From Gammaproteobacteria bacterium (lineage in GTDB: Bacteria; Pseudomonadota; Gammaproteobacteria; Arenicellales; CAJQKF01), in assembly GCA_030429665.1 (NCBI GenBank), contig JAUIEZ010000001.1:62001-126000 (forward strand): a stretch of 64,000 nucleotides of DNA, in the 5' to 3' direction. The notes beneath the pieces are model-generated. The model was not told the origin of the DNA and ran no database searches. It saw nothing but the letters and a program-made list of their open reading frames with translations. This document shows, one piece after another, positions 699 to 63,216 of this stretch (position 1 is the stretch's first letter; every line of letters begins with the position of its first letter). Made by a program: the position numbers and the translations under genes.

Positions 699-2336
699 AT
701 GAAACTTCCGGCGAGAGCCATTTACACCTGGGTCGACGAGATCTTCCTCGACCTCGCGCGGCAGTTCCGCTGGTCCTACCTCCCGCCCCTGATGGTCTAC
801 CTCGCCGCCGGCGTATCCGGTCTGACCGCCATCGTCGGCACGTTTTTCGTCAAGGACTATCTCGGACTATCGGCCGCCTTCCTGGCCGGGCTCGCGTTCT
901 GGGCGGGCATACCCTGGGCGCTGAAGATGCCGCTCGGCCACCTGGTCGACCTAATCTGGCGCTGGAAGGCGTTCCTGGTATGGGTGGGCGCCGGCCTCAT
1001 CGCCACGAGCGTGATCATCATGTACGCCCTTATCGCGCATACCGATGCGATCACCACCATTATGCCGGCCGAAGCCTGGTACGTCGTCTCCGTGCTGCTC
1101 GCCCCGACCGGCTACGTGGTCCAGGACGTGGTGGCCGACGCCATGACCATCGAGGCCGTTCCGGTCATCGACGAGAACGGCAACGCGTTCGGGGATGCCG
1201 ACATCAAGGCGATGCACACGACCATGCAGACCCTCGGCCGCTTCGCCATCATCAGCGGCACGGTGGCGGTCGCGGTCGTCAACATCGTCATGTTCGAGGG
1301 TGTCGAGAATCTCTCCGAGCAACAAAAGGCCGATATCTATGCCGACATCTACCTGCTCGCTTTGATCATCCCGGTGGTCTCGGTAGCCGGCGTAACGCTT
1401 GGATCGCTGTCGCTGCGCGCCCGCGCGCGACGGCTCCGCGCACAGGGGCTCGACGAAGCCGACATCCAGTCCGCGCTCTTCGCGCCCGCCGAGCCGACTG
1501 CGCCGAACTGGTGGATTCTTGGCGGCAGCGCCGTGTTCGTGGTCTTTACGCTGACAATGGGCCTGGGCGAGGTGCCTTTCGCCCAGGAGATCGTCTTCGC
1601 CGGCTCCATGATCATCGTGGTTTACCTGATCCACCGGCTGCTGCTGGAACTCGAGCCCGCCCTGCGCGGACCGCTGGTGGGCACCGCGATCATCATCTTC
1701 GTTTTCCGCGCCGTGCCGCTACCCGGCCCGGGCGCCACCTGGTTCGAAATCGACATGCTCGGATTCGATCAACAGTTCATATCGGTCCTCACCCTGATCA
1801 CGTCGGTCCTGACGCTGGCGGGACTGGTGGTGCTGCGGCCGTTGATGACGCGCCACTCCATCGCCTGGATCGTCGTTTTGCTGACCATCGCCGCGGGCTT
1901 ACTGTCGCTGCCGAACATCGGCCTGTACTACGGCATCCACGAATGGACCCAGCGCTGGACGGCCGGGGTCGTCGATGCCCGTTTCATCGCGATCATCGAT
2001 ACCGCGCTGGAATCGCCTCTCGGCCAGGTCGCGATGATCCCCATGCTGGCGTGGATCGCGCGAAACGCCCCCAAGCACCTCAAGGCGACGTTTTTCGCCG
2101 TCATGGCGTCCTTTTCAAATCTCGCGCTGTCGGCGAGCGCGCTTGGAACGAAATACCTGAACGAAATCTTCGTCGTCACCCGGGAAGTGAGCGACCAGGC
2201 CACCGGCGTCGTCTTGACCCCGGCGGACTACGGCGAACTCGGCTGGTTATTGATCGTCGTCGCCGCGATCGCCGTCGCCGCGCCGCTCGTCACGATTGCC
2301 GTCGTACAGAGAAGTTCGCTTCGCACGGCGCAGTAG
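699..2336 (+). CDS. BT1/folate-biopterin-type MFS transporter
   Basis: A 545-residue integral membrane protein with roughly 12-14 hydrophobic segments spread over its length. The block LKMPLGHLVDLIWRWKAFLV (about residues 72-91) corresponds to the conserved loop between the second and third helices of MFS-type BT1 (folate-biopterin) transporters, and the QDVVADAMTIEAVP block (about 142-155) matches the family's conserved motif after helix 4. Eukaryotic BT1 members move folates and pteridines; bacterial members are mostly uncharacterised, so the substrate cannot be named. A long soluble loop (about 240-270) splits the two halves. The gene stands alone: upstream is a long intergenic gap, downstream is a convergent HIT gene. 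ATG start chosen because the first helix begins shortly after it. Confidence 0.75.
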   Translation: MKLPARAIYTWVDEIFLDLARQFRWSYLPPLMVYLAAGVSGLTAIVGTFFVKDYLGLSAAFLAGLAFWAGIPWALKMPLGHLVDLIWRWKAFLVWVGAGLIATSVIIMYALIAHTDAITTIMPAEAWYVVSVLLAPTGYVVQDVVADAMTIEAVPVIDENGNAFGDADIKAMHTTMQTLGRFAIISGTVAVAVVNIVMFEGVENLSEQQKADIYADIYLLALIIPVVSVAGVTLGSLSLRARARRLRAQGLDEADIQSALFAPAEPTAPNWWILGGSAVFVVFTLTMGLGEVPFAQEIVFAGSMIIVVYLIHRLLLELEPALRGPLVGTAIIIFVFRAVPLPGPGATWFEIDMLGFDQQFISVLTLITSVLTLAGLVVLRPLMTRHSIAWIVVLLTIAAGLLSLPNIGLYYGIHEWTQRWTAGVVDARFIAIIDTALESPLGQVAMIPMLAWIARNAPKHLKATFFAVMASFSNLALSASALGTKYLNEIFVVTREVSDQATGVVLTPADYGELGWLLIVVAAIAVAAPLVTIAVVQRSSLRTAQ

Positions 2337-2436
2337 CGCGCCGCGAACGACTGATCGATGGCGGACGGAACAAGGACTTTCCGCGATAGCCGAGGTCAGC
2401 GACGGGACGAACAACGCGCGGGAACCCGGGAAACGG

Positions 2437-2832
2437 TCAGCCTGAACCTTCCAGGAGCTGGTAGCGCTGCTTTTGCGGTATCACCGCGCGAACGCCGCCC
2501 TGGGGATTCTCGACGTCGCCGACGTATCGCGGAATAAGGTGGATGTGCAGGTGCATCACCGACTGTCCGGCCGCCTTGCCGACGTTGATTCCGACATTGT
2601 ACCCGTCCGGAGAATGCTCGCGATCGAGATGGGCCTTCGCATTGGCGACCATCTCCCACAGCGCGACGCGCTCATCGTCGGTACATTCAAAGTAGTTGGC
2701 AAAGTGGCGTCTTGGCACGATGAGCATGTGTCCGTCGCTCACCGGATGGCGATCGTACCAGGCCTGCGACCATTCGTCGGACAGCACGACGCGATCTTCG
2801 GCCCGGTTGCAGAATCGGCAGGTATCGGTCAC
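2437..2832 (-). CDS. HIT family nucleotide-binding hydrolase
   Basis: A 131-residue protein of normal HIT length. The histidine triad HLHIHLIP lies at residues 94-101 (H94, H96, H98), preceded by the usual GYNVGINVGKAAGQSV segment that forms the nucleotide pocket. HIT-domain proteins of this short type (Hint/Fhit-like) hydrolyse nucleotide phosphoramidates or dinucleoside polyphosphates through a covalent histidine-AMP intermediate. An N-terminal CxxC (C5, C8) fits the zinc site present in many bacterial members. It is a stand-alone gene convergent with the BT1-like transporter. The exact substrate cannot be read from sequence; family assignment is firm. Confidence 0.92.
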   Translation of the reverse strand: MTDTCRFCNRAEDRVVLSDEWSQAWYDRHPVSDGHMLIVPRRHFANYFECTDDERVALWEMVANAKAHLDREHSPDGYNVGINVGKAAGQSVMHLHIHLIPRYVGDVENPQGGVRAVIPQKQRYQLLEGSG

Positions 2833-3036
2833 CAGGAATCCCCGTCTCGCATTGTTTGAAAATGTCGCGTTGAACGTCGCAACCGGAAAACATCTCGGAT
2901 CGGTTCACAGCGACTCATCACGGCGCACCCATCGAGGCCGGGTCGCCGGCACGGCCCGCGGTAATGGCGCGCAGGGCGCGATTCTACCGGGATTCGCCGG
3001 GTGCCGGTACTTCCCGAAGACCGATCGCGCGGCAGT

Positions 3037-4644
3037 CTACAACTGCGATTCGATCGGCAACAGTCGCAGCAACGTTACCGCCACTCGCAACCACAGCGAG
3101 GTTTGTGGCTCGTGGATCCATGCCTGGCTTTCGCCGGCTGCCGTCCAGGTAATCGACTCGCCGCCGGCGAGGGTCTCCTCCAGGGACAGCCGCCACGCGG
3201 CCGTCGAGGTAAATTGCTCGAACCACTCGATCATGTCCGATGCGATGATCTGCGAATCGATCACCAGTCCGATCTCGGTATTCTCGTGAATGGATCGCGG
3301 GTCGAGGTTCAGCGAGCCGACGAACACCCGCTGCCGGTCGAACACGAACGACTTGGCGTGCAGGCTGGCGGCGGACGAACCGCCAAGCGGGCTTCCCACG
3401 ACCGAGAACTCATCCTCGCCCGGCCGCGCCTCGAACAGTTCCACCCCGGCGCGAAGCAGCTCCCGTCGGTATCGGGCGTATCCCGCATGCACAACGGGTA
3501 CGTCCGTCGAGGCGAGCGAATTGGTGAGCACCCGAACCCGGACGCCTCGTGAAACGAGCTCCGCCAGGAAGGCCGCGCCCGCGCGCCCGGGCACGAAGTA
3601 CGGCGAAATGATCACCAAGTCGTGCGTCGTGCCGCTGAACAGGGGCCGTAGCTCCGCCGCCAGTTCGTACTCCGACGAGGCATGCGGCGGATCGATCTTC
3701 TCCGGTCCGTCCGAGACCAGGTGCGCATCGACCCATTCGAGCTGCAGGTTCCCGTCACGGAATTTTCCCGCGAGCCCCGATTCTTTCAGGGCCTCCCGAT
3801 ACGCTTTCTCGGACACCGCGGCGCCGGCATGCGCACGTCGCGTGGCCCGCTCGGCATCGGCGCTCAACCGATCGGTGTCCAGCACTTCGACCGGGTAGGA
3901 GAGATCGCTGTTCCAGAAGGCGTCGAACGATTCGGATACCTCTTCCACGACCGTACCGGCGACCAGGGCATCTAGATCGGTGAAGTTCATCTCGCCCGAC
4001 GCACCGAAATACTCGTCGCCGATATTGCGGCCGCCGATCACGGCCACCGCGTTGTCCACCGTAAACGACTTGTTGTGCATCCGCCGGGTGATCTGCCCAT
4101 ACCGGGTGGCGAACTGCAACGCCCGCGGCGAGCCGCGGGCAAAGGGGTTAAATACGCGCACTTCTATTTCGGGATGATTCGCCAGCGCCGCGGCAGCACT
4201 CTCGCGGCCGCCGAAATCGATGTCATCGACCAGCAAGCGAACGCGAACGCCGCGGTCCGCGGCAGCCAGCAAGTGATCGGTGAACAACCGACCGGTGAGA
4301 TCGTCGTGATACAGGTAGTACTGCGCATCGATGGTACGCTCGGCCAGTTGCGCGAGCACGGCGCGCGCGACGAACGCATCCAGGCCGTCGTCGAGCAGCA
4401 ATACGCCGCTCTTGCCCGAATGCCCGGCCGCCGCCGTGGCGACCCGCTGCCCGAGAAACGTCTGCCCGGCATCGTCGATGGCGAACGACGGCTCTCGTTC
4501 GAAGTCGGTTGGCAACGTGGCACAGCCAGGCGATAGAAGAACGACCGTCAGCAACGCACATACCCGACCGAACAACGGTCGTACTCGACGAGTAAACTTG
4601 CGTCGCGCCGGCGTGGCTTCGGACGATGTCGAGCAAGCGCGCAT
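3037..4644 (-). CDS. phospholipase D-family lipoprotein (cardiolipin synthase-like)
   Basis: Two complete HxK(x)4D catalytic motifs are visible: MHNKSFTVDN with the following GGRNIGDEYF in the middle of the protein, and LHAKSFVFDR with GSLNLDPRS near the C-terminus. This paired arrangement defines phospholipase D/cardiolipin synthase enzymes, which transfer phosphatidyl groups through a phosphohistidine intermediate. Unlike membrane-bound cardiolipin synthases, it has one N-terminal hydrophobic stretch ending in LLSPGCA, a lipobox, so it should be an exported lipoprotein acting in the periplasm, resembling the lipobox-bearing ClsC/YmdC-like group. I prefer the ATG at 4644; an in-frame GTG at 4695 would add 17 residues. 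Physiological substrate is unknown. Confidence 0.85.
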   Translation of the reverse strand: MRACSTSSEATPARRKFTRRVRPLFGRVCALLTVVLLSPGCATLPTDFEREPSFAIDDAGQTFLGQRVATAAAGHSGKSGVLLLDDGLDAFVARAVLAQLAERTIDAQYYLYHDDLTGRLFTDHLLAAADRGVRVRLLVDDIDFGGRESAAAALANHPEIEVRVFNPFARGSPRALQFATRYGQITRRMHNKSFTVDNAVAVIGGRNIGDEYFGASGEMNFTDLDALVAGTVVEEVSESFDAFWNSDLSYPVEVLDTDRLSADAERATRRAHAGAAVSEKAYREALKESGLAGKFRDGNLQLEWVDAHLVSDGPEKIDPPHASSEYELAAELRPLFSGTTHDLVIISPYFVPGRAGAAFLAELVSRGVRVRVLTNSLASTDVPVVHAGYARYRRELLRAGVELFEARPGEDEFSVVGSPLGGSSAASLHAKSFVFDRQRVFVGSLNLDPRSIHENTEIGLVIDSQIIASDMIEWFEQFTSTAAWRLSLEETLAGGESITWTAAGESQAWIHEPQTSLWLRVAVTLLRLLPIESQL

Positions 4645-4755
4645 CACTGGACGTCTTTCAATACCTTTCTGGGATTCGCATTGTAAGCAATTCACCTCGT
4701 GTCACATCTTTCGTATCCACACCGTACCTCATCCGTCTGGCGATTTACCACCGCA

Positions 4756-5664
4756 CTATCCCGACGTTCGCCACCTTCGTACCTGATCGCGAAACACCTC
4801 GACGAAAGCCTGCACCGCGGGCGTCAGCTTCTTCCCCTTGTACTTGATGATGCCAACGTCGCGATAGACCGCTGGCCGCCTGATCGGAATCGTCTTCAGC
4901 AATGGCTGGCTGAGCATCGAGACCGCCATCGACGGCAGCGCCGTGACGCCGAGTCCGGCCTCCACCATTCCCCCCAGCGTATAGTGGTGCTTGGTCTCGT
5001 GCAGCGGCACCAATCGCAGGCGCTCGGCTGCAAGCGCCGAGTCCAGTATCTCACGCACGATCGAGTCTTTTGTCATGGTCAGGAAAGGGGCTTCCGTCAG
5101 ATCCTTCAGGGTAACGCTTCGCCGCCGCGTCCAGGGATGCTGCTTTGGCACGATCGCCACGTAGGCATCTCGCGCCAGGCGTTCGAACTCGAAGTCGCTT
5201 TCCTTCGGCGGCGAAGGACCGATGCCGATTTCCGCCTCGTCGCGTACCAGCTCTCCAAGTATGTCCGCCGCGACGACGTCGTGAACGGAAAGCTGTATGC
5301 CGGGGAACTGGTTCTGGAACCGCGCCATGGCGTCGGGAAGGAAACGCGCGGCGATCGTCGGCACGCACGCGATCACCACGCGACCGCGCTGCAGCGCAGC
5401 CTCGTCCTTCAACTCGTCGACGATATCGCCCAGATCGGTAAGCAGCCGTTCGGCGCGGTGCCTGAATCGTTCGCCGGCGCGCGTCACGCGCACGCGCCGC
5501 GTGGTGCGATCGAGCACCGCGATGCCGAGTTCGTCCTCGAGTTGCTGAACGTGTGCCGTTACCGCGGGCTGGGAGAGATGGACCCGCTCCGACGCGGCTC
5601 GAAAACTGCCCGTCTCGACTACCGCCAGGAAAGTGCGAATCTGCTTGATGGAGATATTATTCAT
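4756..5664 (-). CDS. LysR-type transcriptional regulator
   Basis: A 302-residue LysR protein of standard length. The N-terminal winged helix-turn-helix reads IRTFLAVVETGSFRAASERV then HLSQPAVTAHVQQLEDELG (about residues 9-47); the rest is the periplasmic-binding-protein-like effector domain, with the typical GLGVTALPS segment near residue 237. It is transcribed divergently from the ornithine-cyclodeaminase/CoA-transferase/TRAP genes and is very likely their regulator, by the usual LysR layout. No Shine-Dalgarno sequence precedes the ATG, and the start codon lies inside an AT-rich inverted repeat, consistent with autoregulation or leaderless translation. The inducer is unknown but is presumably the transported substrate of the neighbouring island. 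Confidence 0.92.
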   Translation of the reverse strand: MNNISIKQIRTFLAVVETGSFRAASERVHLSQPAVTAHVQQLEDELGIAVLDRTTRRVRVTRAGERFRHRAERLLTDLGDIVDELKDEAALQRGRVVIACVPTIAARFLPDAMARFQNQFPGIQLSVHDVVAADILGELVRDEAEIGIGPSPPKESDFEFERLARDAYVAIVPKQHPWTRRRSVTLKDLTEAPFLTMTKDSIVREILDSALAAERLRLVPLHETKHHYTLGGMVEAGLGVTALPSMAVSMLSQPLLKTIPIRRPAVYRDVGIIKYKGKKLTPAVQAFVEVFRDQVRRWRTSG

Positions 5665-5676
5665 ATTTTATGAATA
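5658..5676. promoter_or_regulatory. AT-rich inverted repeat, probable LysR operator
   Basis: TATTCATA and TATGAATA are perfect 8-base arms separated by TTT. The core fits the T-N11-A LysR box with dyad symmetry. It overlaps the start codon of the LysR gene (5662-5664) and sits in the divergent region upstream of the GTG start at 5789, inside a markedly AT-rich patch. Operator function is inferred. Confidence 0.5.
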
Positions 5677-5788
5677 GTTTATTTAATCTTTAAAATTGTA
5701 TTGAGTAATCGCCAATGCTTCAATAATCAAAAATCAGTGCCGTCGGCCACAACGGCCACGCCGACAAGTAACAGGAGGACCCAGCAAC

Positions 5789-6910
5789 GTGAGCGAAACG
5801 CTCCTCGTCACTAACCAGGACATGCCCGGCCTCGCCACCATCGGTGAGTGCATCGAGGCGATCGAGCATGCCTACCTCGAGCATGGCCAGGGCACCGCGC
5901 GGGAACTGCCGCGCCGCCGCATCTACCATCCGCGCGAAGACCCGCCCGACCACTACTACTGGTTCAACGAGATGGCGGGCATTGTGCCCGGTGTTCGCAG
6001 CATGGGATTGCGCGTGAACTCGGCGACCGTGAACGTGGCACGAAAACGCGGTAATGCCCGTCTCGGCTTCCCCGGCGCGTTTTCCGCCCTGGTGTTCCTG
6101 TTCGATACCGAGACGACCGAGTTGCTCGCCATTCTTCAGGACTTCTACATCAACCCGATTCGGGTCGCCGCCACCAGTGCCATCGTCACCAAACGCCTGG
6201 CCCGGGACGACTCGAGGGTGATGGGCCTGTTCGGCTCGGGCACCCAGGCGCTGCTCCAGGTTCAGTGCCATCGGGCGGTAACCGGCATCGAGGAGGTTCG
6301 GGTCTACAGCACCCGCCCCGAGCGACGAGAGAAAGTCGCCGCGCAGTTGAACGAACTGGCCGGCATCAACGCTGTCGCCGTGGATCATCCACGGGACGCC
6401 GTGAGGGGATGCGACATCGTCACCACCGCCACCAGTTCCAACGAACCGGTCTTCGACGGCGACTGGCTCGAACCCGGCACCCACGTCAACACCATGATCG
6501 GCTCGGACTACTTTCTGCCGCGCCGCGAGACCGACGACAAGACGGTGCTGAAGAGCGACATCATCGTGGTGAACTCCAGGGAATCCGTGCGACTCGACAA
6601 GCAGCCCGAGCTGTATCCGCACCTGCAGCGCGGCACGCTCAACTGGGACGACGTCTACGAGATCGGCGACCTGATGGTGAAGCGTCATATCCACGGGCGC
6701 TCGACCAGCCAGCAGATCACCTATCACAACAATAATGTCGGCATGGGAATCCAGTTTGCCGCCATGGGTCGTTTGCTCTACGAAAAGGCCATGGAACGCG
6801 GCGTCGGCACCGGCGTCGACTCGCGTTTCTTCATGCAATACGACGACGACCTGCGCGCCATTCGCGACACCGCCTTCCTGGCTGACGCAGACGCGGTCGA
6901 GGTGAACTAG
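5789..6910 (+). CDS. ornithine cyclodeaminase/mu-crystallin family protein
   Basis: A 373-residue protein of the OCD/mu-crystallin family. The conserved features are the MGLRVNS segment, DTETTELLAILQDFYINPIRVAATSA (about residues 110-135, substrate and active-site lysine/arginine region), the Rossmann-type GLFGSGTQA at about 150-158 and the DIVTTATSSNEPVF block. Family members convert L-ornithine to proline, reduce cyclic imines (Pyr2C/ketimine reductases), or act as other NAD(P)-dependent amino-acid dehydrogenases, so the substrate is left open. It starts with GTG, preceded by AGGAGG at 5773-5778, the best ribosome site in this island. It is the first gene of the plus-strand operon that continues three bases later with a class III CoA-transferase. 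Confidence 0.85.
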   Translation: MSETLLVTNQDMPGLATIGECIEAIEHAYLEHGQGTARELPRRRIYHPREDPPDHYYWFNEMAGIVPGVRSMGLRVNSATVNVARKRGNARLGFPGAFSALVFLFDTETTELLAILQDFYINPIRVAATSAIVTKRLARDDSRVMGLFGSGTQALLQVQCHRAVTGIEEVRVYSTRPERREKVAAQLNELAGINAVAVDHPRDAVRGCDIVTTATSSNEPVFDGDWLEPGTHVNTMIGSDYFLPRRETDDKTVLKSDIIVVNSRESVRLDKQPELYPHLQRGTLNWDDVYEIGDLMVKRHIHGRSTSQQITYHNNNVGMGIQFAAMGRLLYEKAMERGVGTGVDSRFFMQYDDDLRAIRDTAFLADADAVEVN

Positions 6911-6913
6911 GCC

Positions 6914-8155
6914 ATGGACCGCGCCGAATACCGCGACGAGTTCCCGCACGCCGCGCCGAGCAAGTCGAAACCGCTCGCCGGCGTCACCGTGATCGACGCG
7001 GGCAACATGGTCGCGGCGCCATTCGCCACGGTGTTGATGGCGGATTTCGGCGCCGAGGTGATCAAGATCGAGCATCCCGAAACGGGCGACGGCCAGCGGC
7101 GACTGGAACCGATCAAGAACGGCGTGCCGCTGTGGTGGAAGAACATCTCGCGCAACAAGCAGTGCGTCACGCTGAACCTGGGTAAACCCGAGGGTGCCGA
7201 GGTGTTCCGCGACCTCGTCACCAGCGCCGACGTGGTCGTCGAGAACTATCGCCCGGGCACGTTCGAACGTTGGGGACTGTCGTGGGAGTCGTTGCGCGCC
7301 GTCAACGAGCGGTTGGTCATGCTGCGCATCTCGGGGTTCGGTCAAACCGGCCCCTACAGCAGCCGTCCCGCCTTCGGTCGCGTTGCCGAGGCCATGAGCG
7401 GGCTGTCACACCTGATCGGCGAAGCCGACGGCCCGCCCATGTCGCCAGGCTATCCGCTTGGCGATCTCATCGCCGGTCTGTTCGGTGCCTACTCGGTGAT
7501 GATGGCGTTGTACCACCGTGACGTGCACGACGGCCCCGGCCAGGTTATAGACCTTGCGCTGTACGAAGCGGTGTTCCGACTGCTCGATTTCGACCCGCTG
7601 GAATTCGACCAGCTTGGCACCGTGCACACACGCACCGGCAACCGCGTCGCTTACGCGGCTCCGAGCTCGACGTTTCGCACCCGCGACGACAAGTACATCA
7701 CCCTGGCCGCTACCACCCAGCGGGTATGGGAGCGGCTGTGCGCGGCGATCGACCGCGAGGATCTCGTTTCCGACCCGCGCTTCGTGGACAACCCGCGCCG
7801 GGTAGAGCGCTCCGAGGAGATCAACGGCGTGGTGGAGTCGTGGATGAGGGAACGCAATCGCGAGGAGGCCAGCGCGCGGCTGAACGAGTTCTCCGTGCCG
7901 CACTCGGCAATCTACGATATGCGAGACGTGTTTCGCGACGCGCAATACCGTGCCCGACAGGCCATGGTACGGGTCGCCGACAACGATCTCGGCGACGCGC
8001 TCGTGCACAACGTCGTGCCGCGCCTGTCCGAAACGCCCGGGTCGGTGGATTGCCTGGGCGCGGCGATGGGCGCCCACAACGAAGCGGTCTATCGCGACCG
8101 GCTAGGTTACCCGCCGGAAAAGCTCAACAGACTCAAGGAAGACGGTGTTATATAG
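6914..8155 (+). CDS. class III (CaiB/BaiF) CoA-transferase
   Basis: A 413-residue protein of normal length for family III CoA-transferases. Diagnostic stretches are GVTVIDAGNMVAAPFATVLMADFGAEVIKIEHP near the N-terminus (given here only as a description of the nucleotide-pocket region at about residues 23-55), SRNKQCVTLNLGKPEG, and YRPGTFERWGL. The catalytic aspartate expected after the NLGKPEG/VVENYRPG region lies in the GEADGPP-GYPLGDL segment (about 167-185). These enzymes move CoA between carboxylic acids. Sitting directly behind the OCD-like gene and ahead of a TRAP transporter, it probably activates the imported acid or a derivative (inference). Confidence 0.93.
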   Translation: MDRAEYRDEFPHAAPSKSKPLAGVTVIDAGNMVAAPFATVLMADFGAEVIKIEHPETGDGQRRLEPIKNGVPLWWKNISRNKQCVTLNLGKPEGAEVFRDLVTSADVVVENYRPGTFERWGLSWESLRAVNERLVMLRISGFGQTGPYSSRPAFGRVAEAMSGLSHLIGEADGPPMSPGYPLGDLIAGLFGAYSVMMALYHRDVHDGPGQVIDLALYEAVFRLLDFDPLEFDQLGTVHTRTGNRVAYAAPSSTFRTRDDKYITLAATTQRVWERLCAAIDREDLVSDPRFVDNPRRVERSEEINGVVESWMRERNREEASARLNEFSVPHSAIYDMRDVFRDAQYRARQAMVRVADNDLGDALVHNVVPRLSETPGSVDCLGAAMGAHNEAVYRDRLGYPPEKLNRLKEDGVI

Positions 8156-8208
8156 AGGCAAGGCCCGCCCGAAGTCAGACTACTACTACAAAACGAGGAG
8201 GAAAGACG

Positions 8209-9201
8209 ATGTTGAATCGAATCATCAAGACGGCCGCGATCGCGGTCACGCTGGCCGCCGCAGGCAGCGCCCAGGCCCAGGACGCGTATCGTTGGACGCT
8301 GTCGGGCGCGAGCCCCGAGGGACTTTGGTCCATGCTCGGCGCCGGCGTGGACTCGGCGCTGCGCACCAGCCATGACGGCTCCGTGGTGACCTACCAGACC
8401 TCGGGCGGCGGGCTCGCCAACGTGGGCATTCTCGATGCCGGGAACGCAGACCTGGGCATCGTCCACAATATCGAGCTGAAAGTGGCCGTCGACGGCGCCG
8501 AGCCGTTCAAGGCGCCGGTGACGAGCCTGCGCGCCATCGCGGTACTGTACAACTGGGCGCCGATGCAGATGGTCATCACGAAGAGCTTCATGGAAGAGCA
8601 CGGTATCACCAGCATGCGCGACATTGCCGGGAAAAAGCCGCCGCTTCGCATCGCGGTGAACCAGCGAGGCAACATGGTGCAGGAGACCAACAAGCAGATC
8701 CTCGACGCGTACGGGATCACTTACGAGGATATCGAGTCCTGGGGCGGACAGGTCGTCTATGCGCCGGGCGGCGAGATGGCCAACCTGTTCAACGACCGAC
8801 GCATCGACATGGCCGGTAACGGCGTGTTCGTGCCCTACCGCTACTTCACCCGCGTGGCCGAGAACATGGCGCTGGACATCCTGCCGCTGGAGCAGGACGT
8901 CATCGAGCAGGTCGCCGCGGCCTCCGGCGCCGATCCGTACCTGATCAAGGCCGGCGGTTACGAGTGGCTGGATCACGACGTACCGACGGTCGCCCTCTCC
9001 GCGGTGCTGGTGGCAAGCGACAAGATGTCCGAACAGGACGCCTACAATTTGACCAAGGCCCTGGTGTCCAACGTTGGCAAGATCCAGGAGGTACACAAGT
9101 CCATGGCCGCGCTGACGCCCGGACTCATGGCTTCCTTGACGGTCGCGCCCTATCACCCGGGCGCGGAGAAGTACTACCGCGAAGCCGGCCTGATGGACTG
9201 A
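8209..9201 (+). CDS. TAXI-family TRAP transporter solute receptor
   Basis: A 330-residue exported receptor. The start at 8209 is fixed by GAGGAGG at 8195-8201 and by the signal peptide that follows (MLNRIIKTAAIAVTLAAAGS with cleavage near AQAQ-DAY). Longer upstream reading frames are spurious. The mature part has the TAXI pattern: a short WTLSGASPEGLWSMLG opening, a GGGLANVGILDAGNADLGIV stretch that lines the binding cleft, and DRRIDMAGNGVFVPYRYF. TAXI receptors work with fused TRAP permeases, and exactly such a permease is the next gene, 28 bases downstream. Known TAXI ligands are small acids such as glutamate; the real ligand is unknown. Confidence 0.88.
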   Translation: MLNRIIKTAAIAVTLAAAGSAQAQDAYRWTLSGASPEGLWSMLGAGVDSALRTSHDGSVVTYQTSGGGLANVGILDAGNADLGIVHNIELKVAVDGAEPFKAPVTSLRAIAVLYNWAPMQMVITKSFMEEHGITSMRDIAGKKPPLRIAVNQRGNMVQETNKQILDAYGITYEDIESWGGQVVYAPGGEMANLFNDRRIDMAGNGVFVPYRYFTRVAENMALDILPLEQDVIEQVAAASGADPYLIKAGGYEWLDHDVPTVALSAVLVASDKMSEQDAYNLTKALVSNVGKIQEVHKSMAALTPGLMASLTVAPYHPGAEKYYREAGLMD

Positions 9202-9229
9202 CAATCGCGTCGACCGGGAATTCCAGTCC

Positions 9230-11185
9230 ATGCCAAACGACCCTGGCGAAACGCCGCTGAAAGGAGTCGCCGCCGTGTTCTTCGCGGTCGGCGCGCGGCG
9301 CGAGCCGGGCGGTCCCGTCGGCGCGGTCACCGCCGCGCTGGCGCTCGGTGTCTCTCTCTGGGTACTTTATGCCGCCACGCTGGCGATCATCGATCCGTTG
9401 GCGCTGGCGGCTGTTTTTCTCTGCTTCATGTTCGCGCTGCTATTCCTGGTCGTGGCCGCGACGCCGGGCTCGACCCGACGGCAGCCGCCGCTTTACGATA
9501 TCGCGCTGGCGCTCGCCGCGGCCGCCTGCGGCATCTATTTTGCGCTCGAATCCGGCCGCATCGTCACTCGCATCTCCCTGCTCGACCCGCTGTCCACGGG
9601 CGATGTCGTCGTCGGCAGCGCGCTGTGCGTGCTGGCAATAGAGGCCACTCGCCGAACCGTCGGCTTCGCGTTGACGCTGATCGTGCTGGCCATGCTCGCC
9701 TACAATCTGTGGGGCGATCACCTGTCGGGCCTGATTGGTCACGGTCCCATCAGCTACCAGCACTTTCTCGACCAGACCATGTTCACCACCAACGGCATCT
9801 TCGGGGCGCCGGTGCGGGTCGCGGCGACCTATGCCTTCCTGTTCGTTACCTTCGGCACCATCCTCGAACGCGCCGGCGGCAGCGAGTTTTTTTTCAACCT
9901 GGCCGCCGCCATCAGCGGGCGCAGCGTCGGCGGCCCGGCCAAGGTGGCGGTGTTCTCCTCGGCGCTCTACGGCACGGTGTCGGGAAGCCCCACTTCGGAC
10001 GTGGTGACCACCGGATCGATCACCATTCCCATGATGCGCCGGCTTGGCTACCCGCGTTCCCTCGCCGGGGGAATCGAGGTAGCGGCGTCGACCAGCGGCG
10101 GACTCATTCCGCCGGTGATGGCCTCGGCCGCTTTCATCATGGTGGAAGTCACCGGCATCCCCTACCTGACCATCGCCAAGGCCGCGCTGATCCCGGCGCT
10201 GCTGTACCTGCTCGGCGTGTTCATCCAGGTGCACCTGCTGTCGAAGCGCTACAACCTCGCGCCGATGGAGGTGAAGGATATTCCCCGGCTCGCGCCGACC
10301 CTGAAGGACGGCGGATTGTTCATCGTCCCGCTGGTCTGCCTGGTGGGCGCACTGTTCGTCGGATACACGGCCACGCTGGTAGCGGTGGTCGGCATCGTCA
10401 GCGTCGTGGCTGTTGCAACGCTGAAATCTTCCACTCGACTCGGACCGATCGCACTGGGATCTGCGCTCGTTACGGCCTGCCGACGCATGGTGCCGGTCGC
10501 TGCAGCGTGCGCCGCGGCGGGTCTCGTGGTCGGCGGCATCAGCATGACCGGGCTGTCCGGTAAGGTCTCGATTCTGGTTTTGGAGCTGGCCGGCGACGGC
10601 ATGCTGTTGTCGCTGATCGTCGTCGCCATGATGGCCATACTGCTGGGCATGGGCATGCCGACGCCCAGCGCCTACATCATGGCAGCGGTGCTGACGGCGC
10701 CGTTTCTCATCGATCTCGGCCTGGCGCCGCTCACCGCGCACATGTTCCTGCTCTTCTTTGCCGTGCTCTCCGCCCTGACGCCGCCGGTCGCCGTCGCCGC
10801 CTTCGCCGCCTCGTCGCTGGCCGAGGCCAATCCCCTGGCGATCGCCTCGCGCGCGGTGCTGCTCGCACTGCCGGCCTTCATCATTCCGTTCATCTTCGCC
10901 TATCGCCCGGAACTGCTCGGGCAGGCGGCGTGGCCGCAGACGGCGACCGCGGTGGTGACTGCCGTAGTCGGGGTGAGTGCGCTCGCCGTCGCGGTGGCCG
11001 GCTACCTTGACCGGCCGCTGGCATGGCACCTGCGTATCGTCGCATTCTCGGTCGGCCTGCTGCTGATGATTCCCGGCCTGGCGACCGATGCGGCGGGTCT
11101 CGCCATCGGCATCGGGTTGCTCGGGACGCTGGCGTGGCGCCGCCGACATGCGCGGCACGTCGCGGACGAAGCCGATGGACCGTAA
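9230..11185 (+). CDS. fused TRAP transporter permease (DctQ-DctM, 4TM/12TM type)
   Basis: A 651-residue polytopic protein of the size typical for TRAP permeases in which the small and large subunits are fused. The first four hydrophobic segments (to about residue 150) correspond to DctQ; the remainder is DctM, with the conserved GTVSGSPTSDVVTTGSITIP block (about 245-264) and GMGMPTPSAYIMAAVL (about 475-490) in the two inverted halves. It should couple Na+ or H+ gradients to uptake of the ligand bound by the TAXI receptor encoded just upstream. Its last 11 bases overlap the next gene, indicating translational coupling. Confidence 0.93.
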   Translation: MPNDPGETPLKGVAAVFFAVGARREPGGPVGAVTAALALGVSLWVLYAATLAIIDPLALAAVFLCFMFALLFLVVAATPGSTRRQPPLYDIALALAAAACGIYFALESGRIVTRISLLDPLSTGDVVVGSALCVLAIEATRRTVGFALTLIVLAMLAYNLWGDHLSGLIGHGPISYQHFLDQTMFTTNGIFGAPVRVAATYAFLFVTFGTILERAGGSEFFFNLAAAISGRSVGGPAKVAVFSSALYGTVSGSPTSDVVTTGSITIPMMRRLGYPRSLAGGIEVAASTSGGLIPPVMASAAFIMVEVTGIPYLTIAKAALIPALLYLLGVFIQVHLLSKRYNLAPMEVKDIPRLAPTLKDGGLFIVPLVCLVGALFVGYTATLVAVVGIVSVVAVATLKSSTRLGPIALGSALVTACRRMVPVAAACAAAGLVVGGISMTGLSGKVSILVLELAGDGMLLSLIVVAMMAILLGMGMPTPSAYIMAAVLTAPFLIDLGLAPLTAHMFLLFFAVLSALTPPVAVAAFAASSLAEANPLAIASRAVLLALPAFIIPFIFAYRPELLGQAAWPQTATAVVTAVVGVSALAVAVAGYLDRPLAWHLRIVAFSVGLLLMIPGLATDAAGLAIGIGLLGTLAWRRRHARHVADEADGP

Positions 11186-58070: not shown

Positions 58071-58697
58071 GTGATTTCCAATCGGTATCGATATATTTTC
58101 GTACACGTTCCCAAGGCCGGCGGAACGACTGTCAAACGTGCGCTCGGCGACGACCCGACCATTGAGGAGAACGACTGGCACCATGATCTGGCGCATTTCA
58201 AGAAAATGCACCGGGACAGGTTCGATACGTTCTTCAAGTTCGCGGTTGCCCGCAACCCGTTTGATCGACTCGTTTCCGCATACTGCTACAACGTTCGCTT
58301 GATGCAGGAGAATGACGCGATTCATTGGCGTCACTACGGCGACCTTTACCGCTGGCTGGCGGCGTCGGTGGAACCTGGCGACCTGCCGGGGAGTTTTCGC
58401 CGATTCGTCGCGAGCGCCTGGTTCGACAAATCGGTCGACGACGGGTTTCCGATCCATTTCAAGCCACTGACGCGATTTATCGCGATCGAAGGTCGCGTGG
58501 AACTGGACTACCTCGCGCGCATCGAAACGCTCGAGCACGACCTCAGGAATATCGCGAAGCGGATCGAGTACGAATTCACCGGCGTTTCGTGGCTGAACAA
58601 GACGCCGCGGGCCGATTACCAGCAGTTCTACGATTACAGGACCTGTACCATCGTTCGGCGCGCGTACGCCGCGGATTTCGAATTGCTGAATCTCTGA
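58071..58697 (+). CDS. sulfotransferase-family protein
   Basis: A 208-residue protein from GTG 58071, of the short Sulfotransfer_2/carbohydrate sulfotransferase type. The 5'-phosphosulfate loop is IFVHVPKAGGTTVKRAL (residues about 9-25) and the 3'-phosphate site is FKFAVARNPFDRLVSAYCYN (about 55-74), both conserved. It transfers sulfate from PAPS to a carbohydrate or other hydroxyl. No signal peptide or membrane anchor. The neighbours downstream are glycosyltransferases and a Ser/Thr-rich secreted protein, so a sulfated surface glycan is plausible, although this gene is on the opposite strand. Confidence 0.85.
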   Translation: MISNRYRYIFVHVPKAGGTTVKRALGDDPTIEENDWHHDLAHFKKMHRDRFDTFFKFAVARNPFDRLVSAYCYNVRLMQENDAIHWRHYGDLYRWLAASVEPGDLPGSFRRFVASAWFDKSVDDGFPIHFKPLTRFIAIEGRVELDYLARIETLEHDLRNIAKRIEYEFTGVSWLNKTPRADYQQFYDYRTCTIVRRAYAADFELLNL

Positions 58698-60152: not shown

Positions 60153-62339
60153 CTACCAGAATAAATCCCGCAGCGACTCGTCTTCCTGGCCAAGTATCGA
60201 TTGCTGTGACGCGATGACCGGATGGCAGACGAATCGCCCGGGCACCTTCCTCAGGTACTGGTCGATGCCCCCACCGTTCTCGTGCAGCCACTGTTCCACT
60301 TCGAACTCGCCGGCGGGGATGGCGTCGAGCAGCATATCGAAAACACGTCGATGGTAGGCGACGGCATGGGTGGAGGTCATCTGGCCAGGACCGATGCGCC
60401 GCAGGTGCTCACGATCGTCCACCGCGTCGAACGTCTCGCCCCACCGATGTCCGCCGAGATACAGCACGTTCCACTCGAGCCCGGCGAGCTCGGGCAAGCA
60501 CTGGCCGAGGTGATACAGCTCGCCTCGAACGAACAACACGTCGTCCTCGAACACGAGCACGCTGTCCAGGTCGAGCTTCTTCGCCTCGGCGATGCACGCG
60601 CGATGGGACAGGGCGCAGCCGGTGTGATGCGATTCGGGCGTCTCGACGGCGCCGAACCGCATCACCCGTTCCGCGATGTCGAGGCGCTCGAACCGTTTGA
60701 CGACTTCGCGCCAGCGCCCGGTCGCGCCGTCCAGGTTGATGCAGTAGATCGCGCCGAAGAAATCGAAGGGGTTGTTCCGCTCGCGAGCCAACGCGCGCAC
60801 GGTATCGGTGACCACAGACTCTGAAACATGTTCGCGAAAATGGGCCGTCACCGCCTCCGTATCCATGCCGAGCTCCTCGAAACCGATAAGGTAATTCCTG
60901 ATCCGTTCCTTCCACAGGTTGGCGTAGCGGGTGCCGGCGGGCCGGCCAAAGCGATGCACCCAGCGAAGGAACGGCAGGCACAGCGTTCGACGCCCCGCCT
61001 GGCGGAATTTTTCGTGGATGTAGCCCTCCTCGGCGCCGAACCCGCGGAATTTCGGGTTGAACCCCAGCCACGCATCCTTCCGGCAGGCAAAGACGCCGAG
61101 CCCCTGCATGGGTATTTCGAAGGGTTCGCTGTCGCGATCCCTGGCGCGGTCGTCGAGGCCCCACGTTCCGTACATTCCAGCGCGCCAGACCGGGTCGAAT
61201 TGACTCGCGTACACATCGAGCTTCTCGCCGAGAAGCGGACCTTGCAGCAGGTCCATGCATTCGGGCCGGGCGTCGAGGTAATCGACGAGGCGGGAAATCG
61301 ATCCCGCCTCCAGGAATACGTGCGAATCCATGCAAAGCACGTATTCTCCCCGTGCTTCGCGAAAAACCATGTCACGCACCGAAGTCCCGCGCACTGCCGA
61401 ATACGGCACGTACCTGACCCCGGCGACCTGGCGCTCCAGCCGGCGCAGGTACTCCGATTCCGGGCCCTCGGGGTGATTGTCGATGATGAGGATCTCCGAT
61501 ATGCCGGTCACCTCGGGATGATAAAGACGAATCGCCTCGACACTGAAGAAAACACCGTCATAGTCGTCGTAGGTCGCCATGCCGATGGTGAGCCTGGGCC
61601 TCGGTGCCGCGGAAGGCTGCCGCGGCGAATCGTCGAACAGATAGCGATGGAACCGGTTGCTGATGCGGGCGGCACGATAGCCCGGCGTCAGTTTATCCTC
61701 GTAGCTAGCGGCGACGGAGCCGGTCGCGTCCCGCAGCTGGCGAGGCACGCGGCCATAGCGTTGACTCCCGTGTGTACGCGTGTGCCTGAGCGCGTCGGTC
61801 CCAAACGCGTAGTCGAAATTGTCCAGGTCCGGCCGACCGCCCGGTGACACGATCTGAGCCTTGACAGGCCGGTGCCGCTCGTCCTGGAGCCCGCCTGTCG
61901 AATCCCAGTGAAACGTGACGTCCGCCAGCGTTTCGTCGTCTACGACAACAACGTCCATCGTGCCGGACATCATCCACGTCCAATAGTTGTCGAGCGGATC
62001 GAACGTCTCGGATGGGTCAAGGAATGCCACCTTGACCGGGCTTGCCGCCGGGATCGGGGAATCGACAACCGGCGCACGCCGCAAAAAACCGCCGGCAATC
62101 AGGCTCGAAACGGTCTCCTCGAGCTCGTGCGGGTCGACATCGCCTTCAAGAACGCTCGATAACTCGTCGCGCAGGGCCGACAAGTCGCGCGTTCCGTCGC
62201 ACAGCTGCCAGATGACGAACCCCGTGGGGTCGGTTCGCATTCGCCTGGAAGGCGCGAACGACTGCAGGAAGACGTCGGGGGATTGGGAACTCCACGACAC
62301 AGCGCAATGCGGCCCGCGCCTGAAAAACGTGTCCTGCAA
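60153..62339 (-). CDS. multidomain glycosyltransferase: PqqD-like, GT2 and GT25 domains
   Basis: A 728-residue cytoplasmic protein with an unusual domain series. Residues about 18-90 fit the PqqD peptide-chaperone (RRE) fold: LQSFAPSRRMRTDPTGFVIW, QLCDGTRDLSALRDELSSVL, and ETVSSLIAGGFL. Residues 100-245 are an unrecognised segment. Residues 248-500 are a GT2 glycosyltransferase (LTIGMATYDDYDGVFFSVEA, metal site CMDSH at 336-340, RGFGAEEGYIHEKFRQAG acceptor side). Residues 528-725 are a GT25/LPS-type transferase (IYCINLDGATGRWREVVKRF, HTGCALSHRA, LVFEDDVLF with E598-D600). Adding a peptide-recognition domain to two transferases suggests that a protein or peptide is the acceptor. The next gene upstream encodes a Ser/Thr-rich secreted protein, a natural candidate. 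Confidence 0.8.
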   Translation of the reverse strand: MQDTFFRRGPHCAVSWSSQSPDVFLQSFAPSRRMRTDPTGFVIWQLCDGTRDLSALRDELSSVLEGDVDPHELEETVSSLIAGGFLRRAPVVDSPIPAASPVKVAFLDPSETFDPLDNYWTWMMSGTMDVVVVDDETLADVTFHWDSTGGLQDERHRPVKAQIVSPGGRPDLDNFDYAFGTDALRHTRTHGSQRYGRVPRQLRDATGSVAASYEDKLTPGYRAARISNRFHRYLFDDSPRQPSAAPRPRLTIGMATYDDYDGVFFSVEAIRLYHPEVTGISEILIIDNHPEGPESEYLRRLERQVAGVRYVPYSAVRGTSVRDMVFREARGEYVLCMDSHVFLEAGSISRLVDYLDARPECMDLLQGPLLGEKLDVYASQFDPVWRAGMYGTWGLDDRARDRDSEPFEIPMQGLGVFACRKDAWLGFNPKFRGFGAEEGYIHEKFRQAGRRTLCLPFLRWVHRFGRPAGTRYANLWKERIRNYLIGFEELGMDTEAVTAHFREHVSESVVTDTVRALARERNNPFDFFGAIYCINLDGATGRWREVVKRFERLDIAERVMRFGAVETPESHHTGCALSHRACIAEAKKLDLDSVLVFEDDVLFVRGELYHLGQCLPELAGLEWNVLYLGGHRWGETFDAVDDREHLRRIGPGQMTSTHAVAYHRRVFDMLLDAIPAGEFEVEQWLHENGGGIDQYLRKVPGRFVCHPVIASQQSILGQEDESLRDLFW

Positions 62340-62423
62340 ACAGGCTCTCCGCTGTCTATGCCCTGTCTCGCCGGCGTTACCCGCGAGCGGGTCGCGACCG
62401 GGACAACAATCGACGATTCCGGC

Positions 62424-63095
62424 TCAGGGCTCGATCGTCGTCGAATCCGAGGTCGAGGGACTGGGCGTCGTGGTCGACGTGGACGAGTCGAGCGTCGTGG
62501 TTGGCGCGACGGTCGTGGTCGGCTCGGGGGTGTCCGGCACATCCTTCGGACACGACCCGGCCCCGCCGGGCGTCGCGGTGAACGATATCCCGTTCACGTC
62601 GCCCTCGATGCGTATGATGACCCCATCGGTGCTTATCAATTTGCCGACGATGGTGTCGCCTGCGTTGAAAAACATCGAGAAGGCGCTTCTTACGATTTTT
62701 CCGGTGGTCTTGAAAAATATGCCGCCCGCCATCTGGATGAGGGCTTTTACGGTCTCACCGTCGATCGTCAGGTGCACGCACCCACCAGAGAAATCGTCTC
62801 CGGCATAACTCGGCAGAATGACCCTTTCCAGGATCGAACTGTCTTCGATCCCGATCGGACCACCGAATTCCACCGCGGAGGTAGTCTGCGCGTGGGCTGG
62901 AAGAATGACCGTTTCGACGACGGGTTTCTTCCAGGCGCCCGGGATGGACTCGGCGCCGATTACCAATCCGCCGCCAGCCAGCAGTTTTCTCAACGCCCCA
63001 CGGCGATGGGACTGGGGATTTTCGGGCGACGCCTCACCGCTCGGGTTCGCCGGGACATTCGCTCCTGTGTTGTTGGTTTTCTCGTCGTCGCGCAT
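62424..63095 (-). CDS. secreted protein with RR-LPAHAQT leader and Ser/Thr-rich tail
   Basis: A 223-residue protein from ATG 63095; the longer frame from 63227 would overlap the divergent glycosyltransferase gene. The N-terminal leader has HRRGALRKLLAGGG (residues 30-43), a twin-arginine-like signal, ending in WKKPVVETVILPAHAQTT (55-72), a block I recognise from many uncharacterised gammaproteobacterial exported proteins. A compact middle domain (about 75-180, two cysteines C106 and C182) follows. Residues 185-223 are almost pure Thr/Ser/Pro/Asp: 21 of 39 are Ser or Thr. Such mucin-like tails are typical O-glycosylation targets. It is encoded 84 bases upstream of the PqqD-GT2-GT25 enzyme on the same strand. 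Function unknown. Confidence 0.7.
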   Translation of the reverse strand: MRDDEKTNNTGANVPANPSGEASPENPQSHRRGALRKLLAGGGLVIGAESIPGAWKKPVVETVILPAHAQTTSAVEFGGPIGIEDSSILERVILPSYAGDDFSGGCVHLTIDGETVKALIQMAGGIFFKTTGKIVRSAFSMFFNAGDTIVGKLISTDGVIIRIEGDVNGISFTATPGGAGSCPKDVPDTPEPTTTVAPTTTLDSSTSTTTPSPSTSDSTTIEP

Positions 63096-63216
63096 CGCCC
63101 ATCCCCGATCAATTGGTTGTTGTGACGCGGGATTCTCGCAGGATATGCTCGGGTTATCAACCAACGAACCGACGAACATCAGCTCGCCACGGCGGGCAGA
63201 ACCGACGTTGCCACCG

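What the first reader, a model, noticed from the sequence alone, without database searches (positions are those of the whole stretch)
60153..63095. Predicted dedicated O-glycosylation pair: PqqD-GT2-GT25 enzyme and a Ser/Thr-rich secreted protein
Sequence shows a glycosyltransferase whose N-terminus looks like the PqqD peptide-binding fold, fused to two unrelated transferase domains, adjacent to a gene for an exported protein with an RR leader, LPAHAQT motif and a 39-residue tail containing 21 Ser/Thr. PqqD-type domains bind RiPP leader peptides. Inference: the domain recognises the conserved leader of the secreted protein (RRxxL...WKKPVV...LPAHAQT) and the two transferases build a glycan on the tail in the cytoplasm before export. 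A leader-guided glycosylation of a folded exported protein would be a new use of the RRE fold.
Basis: partly seen in the sequence, partly recalled or inferred. Interest (0 to 1): 0.88.

Follow-up and report, generated by a model that had tools for sequence, protein, structure and literature searches.

The report
Leader-guided glycosylation of exported bacterial proteins
A bacterial sugar-adding enzyme appears to carry a peptide-gripping domain that lets it pick out secreted proteins by a shared tag at their front end, a targeting trick known so far from small peptide antibiotics and cofactors, here apparently used to decorate mucin-like secreted proteins.

Summary
Observation confirmed. P0001 (60153-62339, minus): PqqD/RRE domain, FucT_N-like segment, GT2, GT25. 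P0002 lies 84 bp upstream on the same strand, with an RR...WKKPVV...LPAHAQTT leader and 21 Ser/Thr in its last 39 residues. 'Dedicated pair' is too narrow: 14 places of the own genome carry this leader. Leader and a PqqD family (A3) co-occur in 35 of 109 order genomes (4 leader only, 3 PqqD only, 67 neither). Of 80 GT loci from several phyla, 35 have a leader ORF, 53 a PqqD, 30 both, 22 neither. Leader proteins in GT loci are richer in Ser/Thr (median 0.375 against 0.181). WxxP, published for PqqD-type RREs, is in 119 of 121 leader hits. The PqqD domain models as an RRE (top match TbiB1 with leader); GT2 and GT25 match COLGALT1 and ppGalNAc transferases by domain fold. In some loci PqqD is fused to an RR-signal, Thr-rich protein. 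RRE-glycosyltransferase fusions were already predicted in print; my searches found no report of this substrate family. Best reading: cytoplasmic, RRE-guided O-glycosylation of Tat-type exported proteins. Binding, sugar transfer and export are inferred.

The parts
62424..63095 (-). P0002, 223 aa leader-tagged, Ser/Thr-tailed, putatively exported protein
   Evidence: no Pfam match at E up to 1 and no NCBIfam match at E up to 10
62880..63005 (-). conserved leader of P0002, residues 31-72: RRGALRKLLAGGG...GAWKKPVVETVILPAHAQTT
   Evidence: alignment A1 of 14 own-genome leaders; column counts over 121 hits
62922..62933 (-). WKKP, the WxxP of the family, proposed RRE recognition motif
   Evidence: WxxP in 119 of 121 leader hits; W/Y/LxxP/L/I motif of RRE groups that include PqqD in PMC12710340 section 7
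62799..62840 (-). SSILERVILPSYAG, looks like a variant of a second motif (ILDxFxxxAHA) of other leader proteins; possible second cleavage site
   Evidence: second motif in 37 of 86 mature parts of 60 aa or more, duplicates included, against a shuffled mean of 2.5; P0002's variant is likened by eye and is not among the 37
62427..62543 (-). C-terminal 39 residues, 21 Ser/Thr, proposed glycosylated tail
60153..62339 (-). P0001, 728 aa PqqD - FucT_N-like - GT2 - GT25 protein (TTG start assumed)
62049..62339 (-). PqqD/RRE domain, residues 1-97 (Pfam core 35-81)
61800..62042 (-). FucT_N-like segment, about residues 100-180 (bounds mine)
   Evidence: alignment A8; homologous segments of L105, L118 and L127 hit PF18025 just below cut-off; residues 182-244 have pLDDT under 50
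60795..61607 (-). GT2 domain, about residues 245-515 (bounds mine; Pfam 282-360), fold like ppGalNAc transferases
   Evidence: D338, H340, H462 invariant in 25 rows
60156..60782 (-). GT25 domain, about residues 520-728 (Pfam 520-629)
63132..63160 (-). promoter-like sequence upstream of P0002; no minus-strand terminator-like site was found between P0002 and P0001
   Evidence: consensus match only; 2 found in the region, 0.6 expected
58071..58697 (+). sulfotransferase-family gene nearby; its part, if any, is unknown
   Evidence: PF03567 61.3 bits
63217..63999 (+). divergent GT2-family gene, cut by the window end
   Evidence: PF00535 80.3 bits

Best explanation
P0002 is made in the cytoplasm with a leader that combines an RR (Tat-like) export signal ending in an AHA/Q cleavage site with a WxKP recognition motif. 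The PqqD/RRE domain of P0001 grips the leader around WxKP and tethers P0002 to the enzyme; its ppGalNAc-T-like GT2 domain adds the first sugar to Ser/Thr of the exposed tail and its GT25 domain extends the glycan. The decorated protein is then exported and the leader removed. Shown by computation: domains and folds, gene pairing, genome co-occurrence, leader conservation, Ser/Thr enrichment, natural fusions of PqqD with RR-signal Thr-rich proteins. Inferred: leader binding, sugar transfer, which sugars, order of steps, Tat export, cleavage.
For: (1) RRE fold: best Foldseek match of the PqqD domain is TbiB1 with bound leader; TigE, TruD, lasso B1 and PqqD are in the list. (2) WxxP in 119 of 121 leader hits, a motif published for RRE groups that include PqqD. 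(3) A leader ORF lies in the fetched stretch of 12 of 18 GT places from other genomes of the order and of 35 of 80 loci; 39 of 51 leader ORFs are under 1.5 kb from the GT ORF; in 23 of 35 loci the nearest one is upstream, same strand, under 1.5 kb. (4) Genome co-occurrence of leader (E up to 1e-3) and PqqD alignment A3 (E up to 1e-6): 35 both, 4 leader only, 3 PqqD only, 67 neither of 109, Fisher p 1.4e-20; class 6, 1, 7, 355 of 369, p 3.5e-9, four of the six being of the own order. (5) Ser/Thr fraction of the mature part: median 0.375 for 55 leader proteins of GT loci against 0.181 for 56 others, p 1.5e-15; within the order 0.325 (14) against 0.181 (56), p 5.3e-6. (6) Whole model: COLGALT1 first (E 6.4e-19), then ppGalNAc transferases (E 6.4e-13 on); both kinds act on polypeptides (recalled). 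(7) Five loci by script, plus L124 by eye, hold PqqD fused to an RR signal and Thr-rich tail beside the GT. (8) PqqD over the Pfam cut-off is also fused to Gly_transf_sug, LicD and GT7C domains, and to weaker GT2_4 and PIG-L matches, in loci with leader genes.
Against: No biochemistry. PqqD of P0001 is below the Pfam cut-off in hmmscan. Of 80 GT loci 22 have neither leader nor PqqD, 5 a leader without PqqD, 23 a PqqD without this leader; PqqD there was called with a local profile, and where Pfam was run some are below cut-off (L140 16.6, L117 12.5). Of 17 order homologs scanned, 8 show no PqqD match at E up to 0.5 and 2 only a weak one; six have TPR matches instead, over cut-off in L065, L067 and L068. 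Genes near leader genes outside GT loci are not visibly enriched for glycosyltransferases: none among the first 25 of 229 families, which does not show families with fewer than 3 members (far control). The PqqD-RR-tail fusions lack the WxxP leader, so PqqD cannot work there exactly as proposed. COLGALT1 aligns at rmsd 22 and TM 0.22-0.30, so domains match, not their arrangement; heparosan synthase, a polysaccharide enzyme, is also in the list. Loci are not all independent (L102 and L103 have identical leader ORFs; several records are the order genomes again; L117 and L120 are one bin).
Confidence: 0.7

Rival explanations
1. The main modification of leader proteins is phosphorylation or phospho-glycosylation by the separate PqqD + HprK-like + nucleotidyltransferase gene set (own genome C120); P0001 only extends or decorates afterwards. 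This resembles PsmK/PsmN of pseudomycoidin. Not exclusive of the best explanation.
For: HprK_rel_A-like genes co-occur with the leader (34 both, 5 leader only, 4 HprK only, 66 neither of 109, p 1.6e-18). Own C120: HprK_rel_A 98.9 bits and Hpr_kinase_C 26.1 bits, below its cut-off of 33.3, PqqD 48.0, NTP_transf_5 135.2. In L109, L146 and L155 the GT2 itself is fused to an HprK_rel_A-like domain. PsmK phosphorylates a C-terminal Ser and PsmN is needed for hexose on it; that review leaves open that PsmN is a nucleotidyltransferase (PMC9266682, passages).
Against: No kinase match in P0001; a GT2 fold like ppGalNAc transferases fits direct Ser/Thr transfer; the HprK_rel_A hits are mostly far below the NCBIfam cut-off of 200 bits (1 of 109 genomes over it).
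Confidence: 0.4
2. The leader is only an export signal, PqqD binds something else, and P0001 builds a surface polysaccharide or lipopolysaccharide; neighbourhoods reflect a surface-glycan region.
For: GT25 is the LPS-type family by name; another GT2 gene lies next door; heparosan synthase among the fold matches; no visible GT enrichment near leader genes in general.
Against: WxKPVVxSV is conserved beyond RR and the cleavage motif, more than export should need (recalled); genome-wide leader-PqqD co-occurrence; PqqD-RR-tail fusions; Ser/Thr enrichment in GT loci.
Confidence: 0.1
3. PqqD is a chaperone of Tat-type leaders (like redox enzyme maturation proteins, recalled) that times export; enzyme fusions hold the substrate rather than direct sugar transfer.
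For: Cis fusions PqqD-RR signal-tail without WxxP.
Against: PqqD is repeatedly fused to sugar-related enzymes, and its fold matches leader-binding domains of modifying enzymes.
Confidence: 0.25
4. The loci are biosynthetic clusters of small secreted glycopeptides (RiPP natural products), not of structural glycoproteins. Not exclusive of the best explanation.
For: In alphaproteobacterial loci the parts after the leader are 14-106 residues, in several loci with two or more leader ORFs in a row.
Against: P0002 and the order's leader proteins of GT loci are mostly longer (median mature 166 aa of 14). Proteases, dedicated exporters and activity were not looked for.
Confidence: 0.3

Closest known systems
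RRE-dependent RiPP systems (PqqD, lasso B1 proteins TbiB1/FusE, McjB)
   Same: PqqD/RRE fold; a leader with a W/Y/LxxP-type motif; RRE fused to or beside the modifying enzyme
   Different: Substrates look like exported proteins with an RR signal and Ser/Thr-rich or longer mature parts; the leader seems to double as export signal; up to 20 leader matches per genome
RRE-glycosyltransferase fusions predicted by RRE-Finder (PMC7470986) and the 2025 RRE survey (PMC12710340)
   Same: RRE fused to a glycosyltransferase, PF00535 in the 2025 survey
   Different: The passages I saw name no substrate family of this kind, no export leader and no mucin-like tail; supplements were not available to me
HPr-rel-A system of NCBIfam (TIGR04352, TIGR04353)
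   Same: PqqD plus HprK-like kinase; the PqqD family found here co-occurs with HprK_rel_A-like genes
   Different: Scores mostly below the curated cut-offs; I found no paper that names the system
Eukaryotic COLGALT1 and ppGalNAc transferases
   Same: domain folds; COLGALT1 aligns over both the GT2 and GT25 parts; polypeptide acceptors (recalled)
   Different: Bacterial, carries an RRE; overall arrangement does not superpose (rmsd 22)
DUF2063 RREs with Sec-signal DUF2282 precursors (PMC12710340 section 7; called bufferins from recall)
   Same: RRE paired with precursors that carry an export signal
   Different: Different RRE group, no specific recognition motif reported there, no glycosyltransferase named there

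Membership tests
PqqD / RRE domain (PF05402) | profile match over the curated cut-off | tested here: inconclusive
   P0001 19.9 bits by hmmscan, 23.9 by genome search, cut-off 23.4; 7 of 17 scanned order homologs over it
PqqD / RRE domain (PF05402) | winged-helix fold, three strands then three helices | tested here: met
   model of residues 1-97 and PDB matches
PqqD / RRE domain (PF05402) | binds the leader of the partner protein | not testable with these tools
   WxxP conservation and gene pairing are indirect
GT2 (PF00535) | profile over cut-off | tested here: met
   29.0 bits, cut-off 23.3
GT25 (PF01755) | profile over cut-off | tested here: met
   29.8 bits, cut-off 24
ppGalNAc transferase-like | fold | tested here: met
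   Foldseek E 6.4e-13 to 2d7i, rmsd 6.5, TM by target 0.40
ppGalNAc transferase-like | DxH plus third His metal site | tested here: inconclusive
   D338, H340, H462 invariant in 25 rows; that these are the family's metal ligands is recalled, not aligned here
FucT_N (PF18025) | profile over cut-off | tested here: not met
   L105 22.6, L118 26.2, L127 26.6 bits, cut-off 27.2; no match in whole P0001 at E up to 1
RiPP | leader plus core precursor with RRE-dependent enzyme | tested here: inconclusive
   anatomy and pairing fit; modification and leader removal not shown
HPr-rel-A system (TIGR04352/TIGR04353) | curated score cut-offs | tested here: not met
   TIGR04352 77.5-99.6 bits in three GT2 fusions, cut-off 200, own genome 98.9, over it in 1 of 109 genomes; TIGR04353 29.0 (L109) and 20.4 (L036), cut-off 35
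Tat substrate | RR motif and signal peptidase site | tested here: inconclusive
   RR within 45 residues before WxxP in 117 of 119, AxA-like end in 110 of 121, the end having been set with a similar pattern; no signal-peptide predictor was on hand

The most novel reading that the evidence does not exclude
A widespread, undescribed class of bacterial protein glycosylation in which a RiPP-type RRE reads a WxKP motif inside a Tat-type export leader, so that mucin-like secreted proteins are O-glycosylated in the cytoplasm before export; the same leader marks the substrates of the HprK-like/PqqD/nucleotidyltransferase gene set, and a second cluster with a new domain (A9) adds hydroxyproline-type glycans to Pro-rich leader proteins.
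Probability: 0.55. Interest if true: 0.93.

Novelty: new variant of a known kind. Interest (0 to 1): 0.86.

Why it matters
It would extend RRE-guided modification from small natural products and cofactors to exported glycoproteins, give the HprK-like/PqqD gene set a testable substrate family, and offer a modular, leader-programmable O-glycosylation system in bacteria with enzymes that resemble human collagen and mucin glycosyltransferases.

Tried and rejected
Rejected: 'dedicated pair' (14 leader places in the own genome). Not borne out: GT enrichment near leader genes in general; 120 of 132 near genes and 120 of 135 far genes from own and order loci outside the GT loci were scanned; the near list's first 25 of 229 families hold no GT family (TPR in 6 of 120), the far list's first 25 of 161 hold Glycos_transf_1 in 2 of 120. 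Single near genes are glycosyltransferases all the same (L022, L025; L204). Middle segment against PDB sequences: no match at E up to 1. P0001 against PDB sequences: only procollagen galactosyltransferase 1, at E 0.17-0.23.

Literature searches without a hit: 'LPAHAQ', 'HPr-rel-A', RiPP + leader peptide + glycosyltransferase + twin-arginine, HprK-related + PqqD, twin-arginine + O-glycosylation + threonine-rich. With hits: PqqD + glycosyltransferase + RiPP recognition element 6 papers, RRE + glycosyltransferase fusion + RiPP 1, PqqD + HPr kinase + nucleotidyltransferase 3, leader peptide + RiPP recognition element + O-glycosylation 1, pseudomycoidin terms 3. The library holds no bioRxiv preprints and lacks most subscription papers. 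Seen: PMC12710340 passages and section 7; PMC7470986 one passage; PMC9266682 passages; all others listings only.

Limits of my own counts. The leader profile was built from own-genome rows with invariant W and P, which favours WxxP. Five of the six rows of PqqD alignment A3 were picked beside leader genes. The PqqD profile is local and only partly checked with Pfam. Cleavage points were set by a pattern; a few mature parts (such as L029) are cut too late. 'Leader proteins of GT loci' means anywhere in the fetched stretch. Co-occurrence tables were counted by hand from the listings and ignore shared ancestry. Duplicates and mature parts under 10 residues were dropped, parts under 60 in the motif count, which kept duplicates. 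The first within-order count (5 against 56) lost rows to duplicate removal across groups and was redone. The binomial values assume a 4% chance per locus, my own estimate.
Full report
What is there. The window is G000:C86:62001-126000 of a 5.0 Mb draft genome. P0002 and P0001 lie 84 bp apart on the minus strand, P0002 first, with a promoter-like site before P0002 and no minus-strand terminator-like site between them. A GSDH-family gene follows P0001 on the same strand.

P0001. Pfam finds GT25 and GT2 over cut-off and PqqD near it. The own genome has six PqqD matches over cut-off: P0001 and five in open frames of 90-176 aa on other contigs. The AlphaFold2 model (mean pLDDT 82.9) shows strands at 12-16, 23-27 and 33-36 and helices at 38-46, 53-64 and 70-82, the order known for RREs (recalled). 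Predicted alone, residues 1-97 match RREs first. The whole model matches human COLGALT1 first, at rmsd 22, so by domains and not by arrangement, and ppGalNAc transferases next. Between PqqD and GT2 lies a segment whose homologs score just below cut-off on FucT_N; P0001 itself does not. D338, H340 and H462 are invariant among 25 rows; that they are the ppGalNAc-T metal ligands is recalled.

The leader family. About residues 15-80 of P0002 match 14 places of the own genome, P0002 included; the mature parts mostly look different, two pairs look alike (by eye). Consensus of 14: RRxLLKALxxGGGxxxxxxLPxxWxRPVVESVxLPAHAQTT. It occurs in 39 of 109 order genomes, up to 20 matches each, and in 7 of 369 class genomes at a stricter limit. 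Of 121 hits in the loci fetched, 119 hold WxxP and 117 of these RR within 45 residues before it; H and A of the cleavage motif are at 94% each. PMC12710340 section 7 (read) reports W/Y/LxxP/L/I recognition for RRE groups that include FusE, McjB, PqqD and StsC.

Pairing. Relatives of P0001 are in 15 of 109 order genomes. Of 18 places in other genomes, 12 have a leader ORF in the stretch fetched; two of the other six are on contigs of 3.3 and 4.0 kb. A scan of genome contigs found 120 relatives and kept 80 loci. Of these, 35 hold a leader ORF, 53 a PqqD by the local profile, 30 both, 22 neither. Of 51 leader ORFs 39 are under 1.5 kb from the GT ORF, 8 at 1.5-3 kb and 4 further. In 23 of 35 loci the nearest leader ORF is upstream, co-directional and under 1.5 kb away. 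The loci are not all independent.

Genome-wide. PqqD alignment A3 hits 38 of 109 order genomes, 35 of them with the leader; 4 genomes have the leader only, 67 neither (p 1.4e-20). HprK_rel_A-like genes: 34 both, 4 HprK only, 5 leader only, 66 neither. Class level: 6 both, 1 leader only, 7 PqqD only, 355 neither; four of the six are of the own order. Shared ancestry inflates these values. The own genome's C120 holds an HprK-like frame, PqqD and NTP_transf_5, so other leader proteins may be served in trans (inference).

Tails. Among non-duplicate leader proteins the mature part is 37.5% Ser/Thr (median of 55) in GT loci and 18.1% elsewhere (median of 56). The groups differ in taxonomy; within the order it is 32.5% (14) against 18.1% (56), p 5.3e-6. 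Best-25-residue Ser/Thr of at least 0.6: 8 of 14 against 1 of 56. Not all in GT loci are rich: L055, L066 and one L069 protein reach only 0.28-0.32.

Modularity. PqqD over cut-off precedes GT2 or GT25 in 7 of 17 order homologs. In loci with leader genes it is also fused to Gly_transf_sug, LicD and GT7C domains and to weaker GT2_4 and PIG-L matches. In L111, L116, L117, L120 and L141 (script) and L124 (by eye) PqqD is fused to an RR signal and a Thr-rich tail beside the GT; Pfam puts PqqD over cut-off in L111 and L141, just below in L116 (22.9) and at 12.5 in L117; L120 and L124 were not scanned, and L117 and L120 are from one bin. The records are named Fraserbacteria, Actinomycetota, Microthrix, Anaerolineae and Acidobacteria. 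These fusions tie PqqD to exported Thr-rich proteins independently of the WxxP leader, but show too that PqqD need not read that leader there.

Judgement. What it works like: an RRE-guided modifying enzyme. What it is: GT2 and GT25 by profile, RRE by fold; not a member of HPr-rel-A as NCBI defines it. Prior art covers RRE-glycosyltransferase fusions; in what I searched, it does not cover this leader family or its link to export and mucin-like tails.

Noticed in passing
L022 (G000:C182) 802-9542: Leader protein with a Pro/Thr-repeat tail beside a GlcNAc transferase, an O-FucT and a 1236-aa protein with HPAT, GlcNAc and 2OG-oxygenase domains: looks like a bacterial hydroxyproline-type glycosylation cluster. 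Similar gene sets in L189, L220 and L202 by first residues only.
   Followed up: partly
L022:2861-3109 and L022:7248-7496, minus: Unknown ~70-aa domain (A9) shared by two enzymes of that cluster; in 6 of 109 order genomes, all leader-positive, on the same contig as a listed leader match in 5 of them. Candidate second leader-recognition domain.
   Followed up: partly
leader proteins; variant in P0002 at window 62799-62840: Second motif ILDxFxxxAHA ending 30-64 residues after the first cleavage site in 37 of 86 mature parts (duplicates included), shuffled mean 2.5; possible second cleavage site.
   Followed up: partly
L109, L155; in part L146, L180: Gene sets of leader peptides, discrete PqqD, GT2 fused to an HprK_rel_A-like domain, and NTP_transf_5: all four checked in L109 and L155; in L146 NTP_transf_5 and in L180 the HprK part were not scanned with Pfam.
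   Followed up: partly
L113, L114, L159, L165, L166 and 17 others: 22 of 80 GT2 relatives have neither leader nor PqqD in the stretch fetched; their substrates are unknown.
   Followed up: no
L146:7339-9867: DUF6065 (264 bits) fused in front of the HprK-like and GT2 domains.
   Followed up: no
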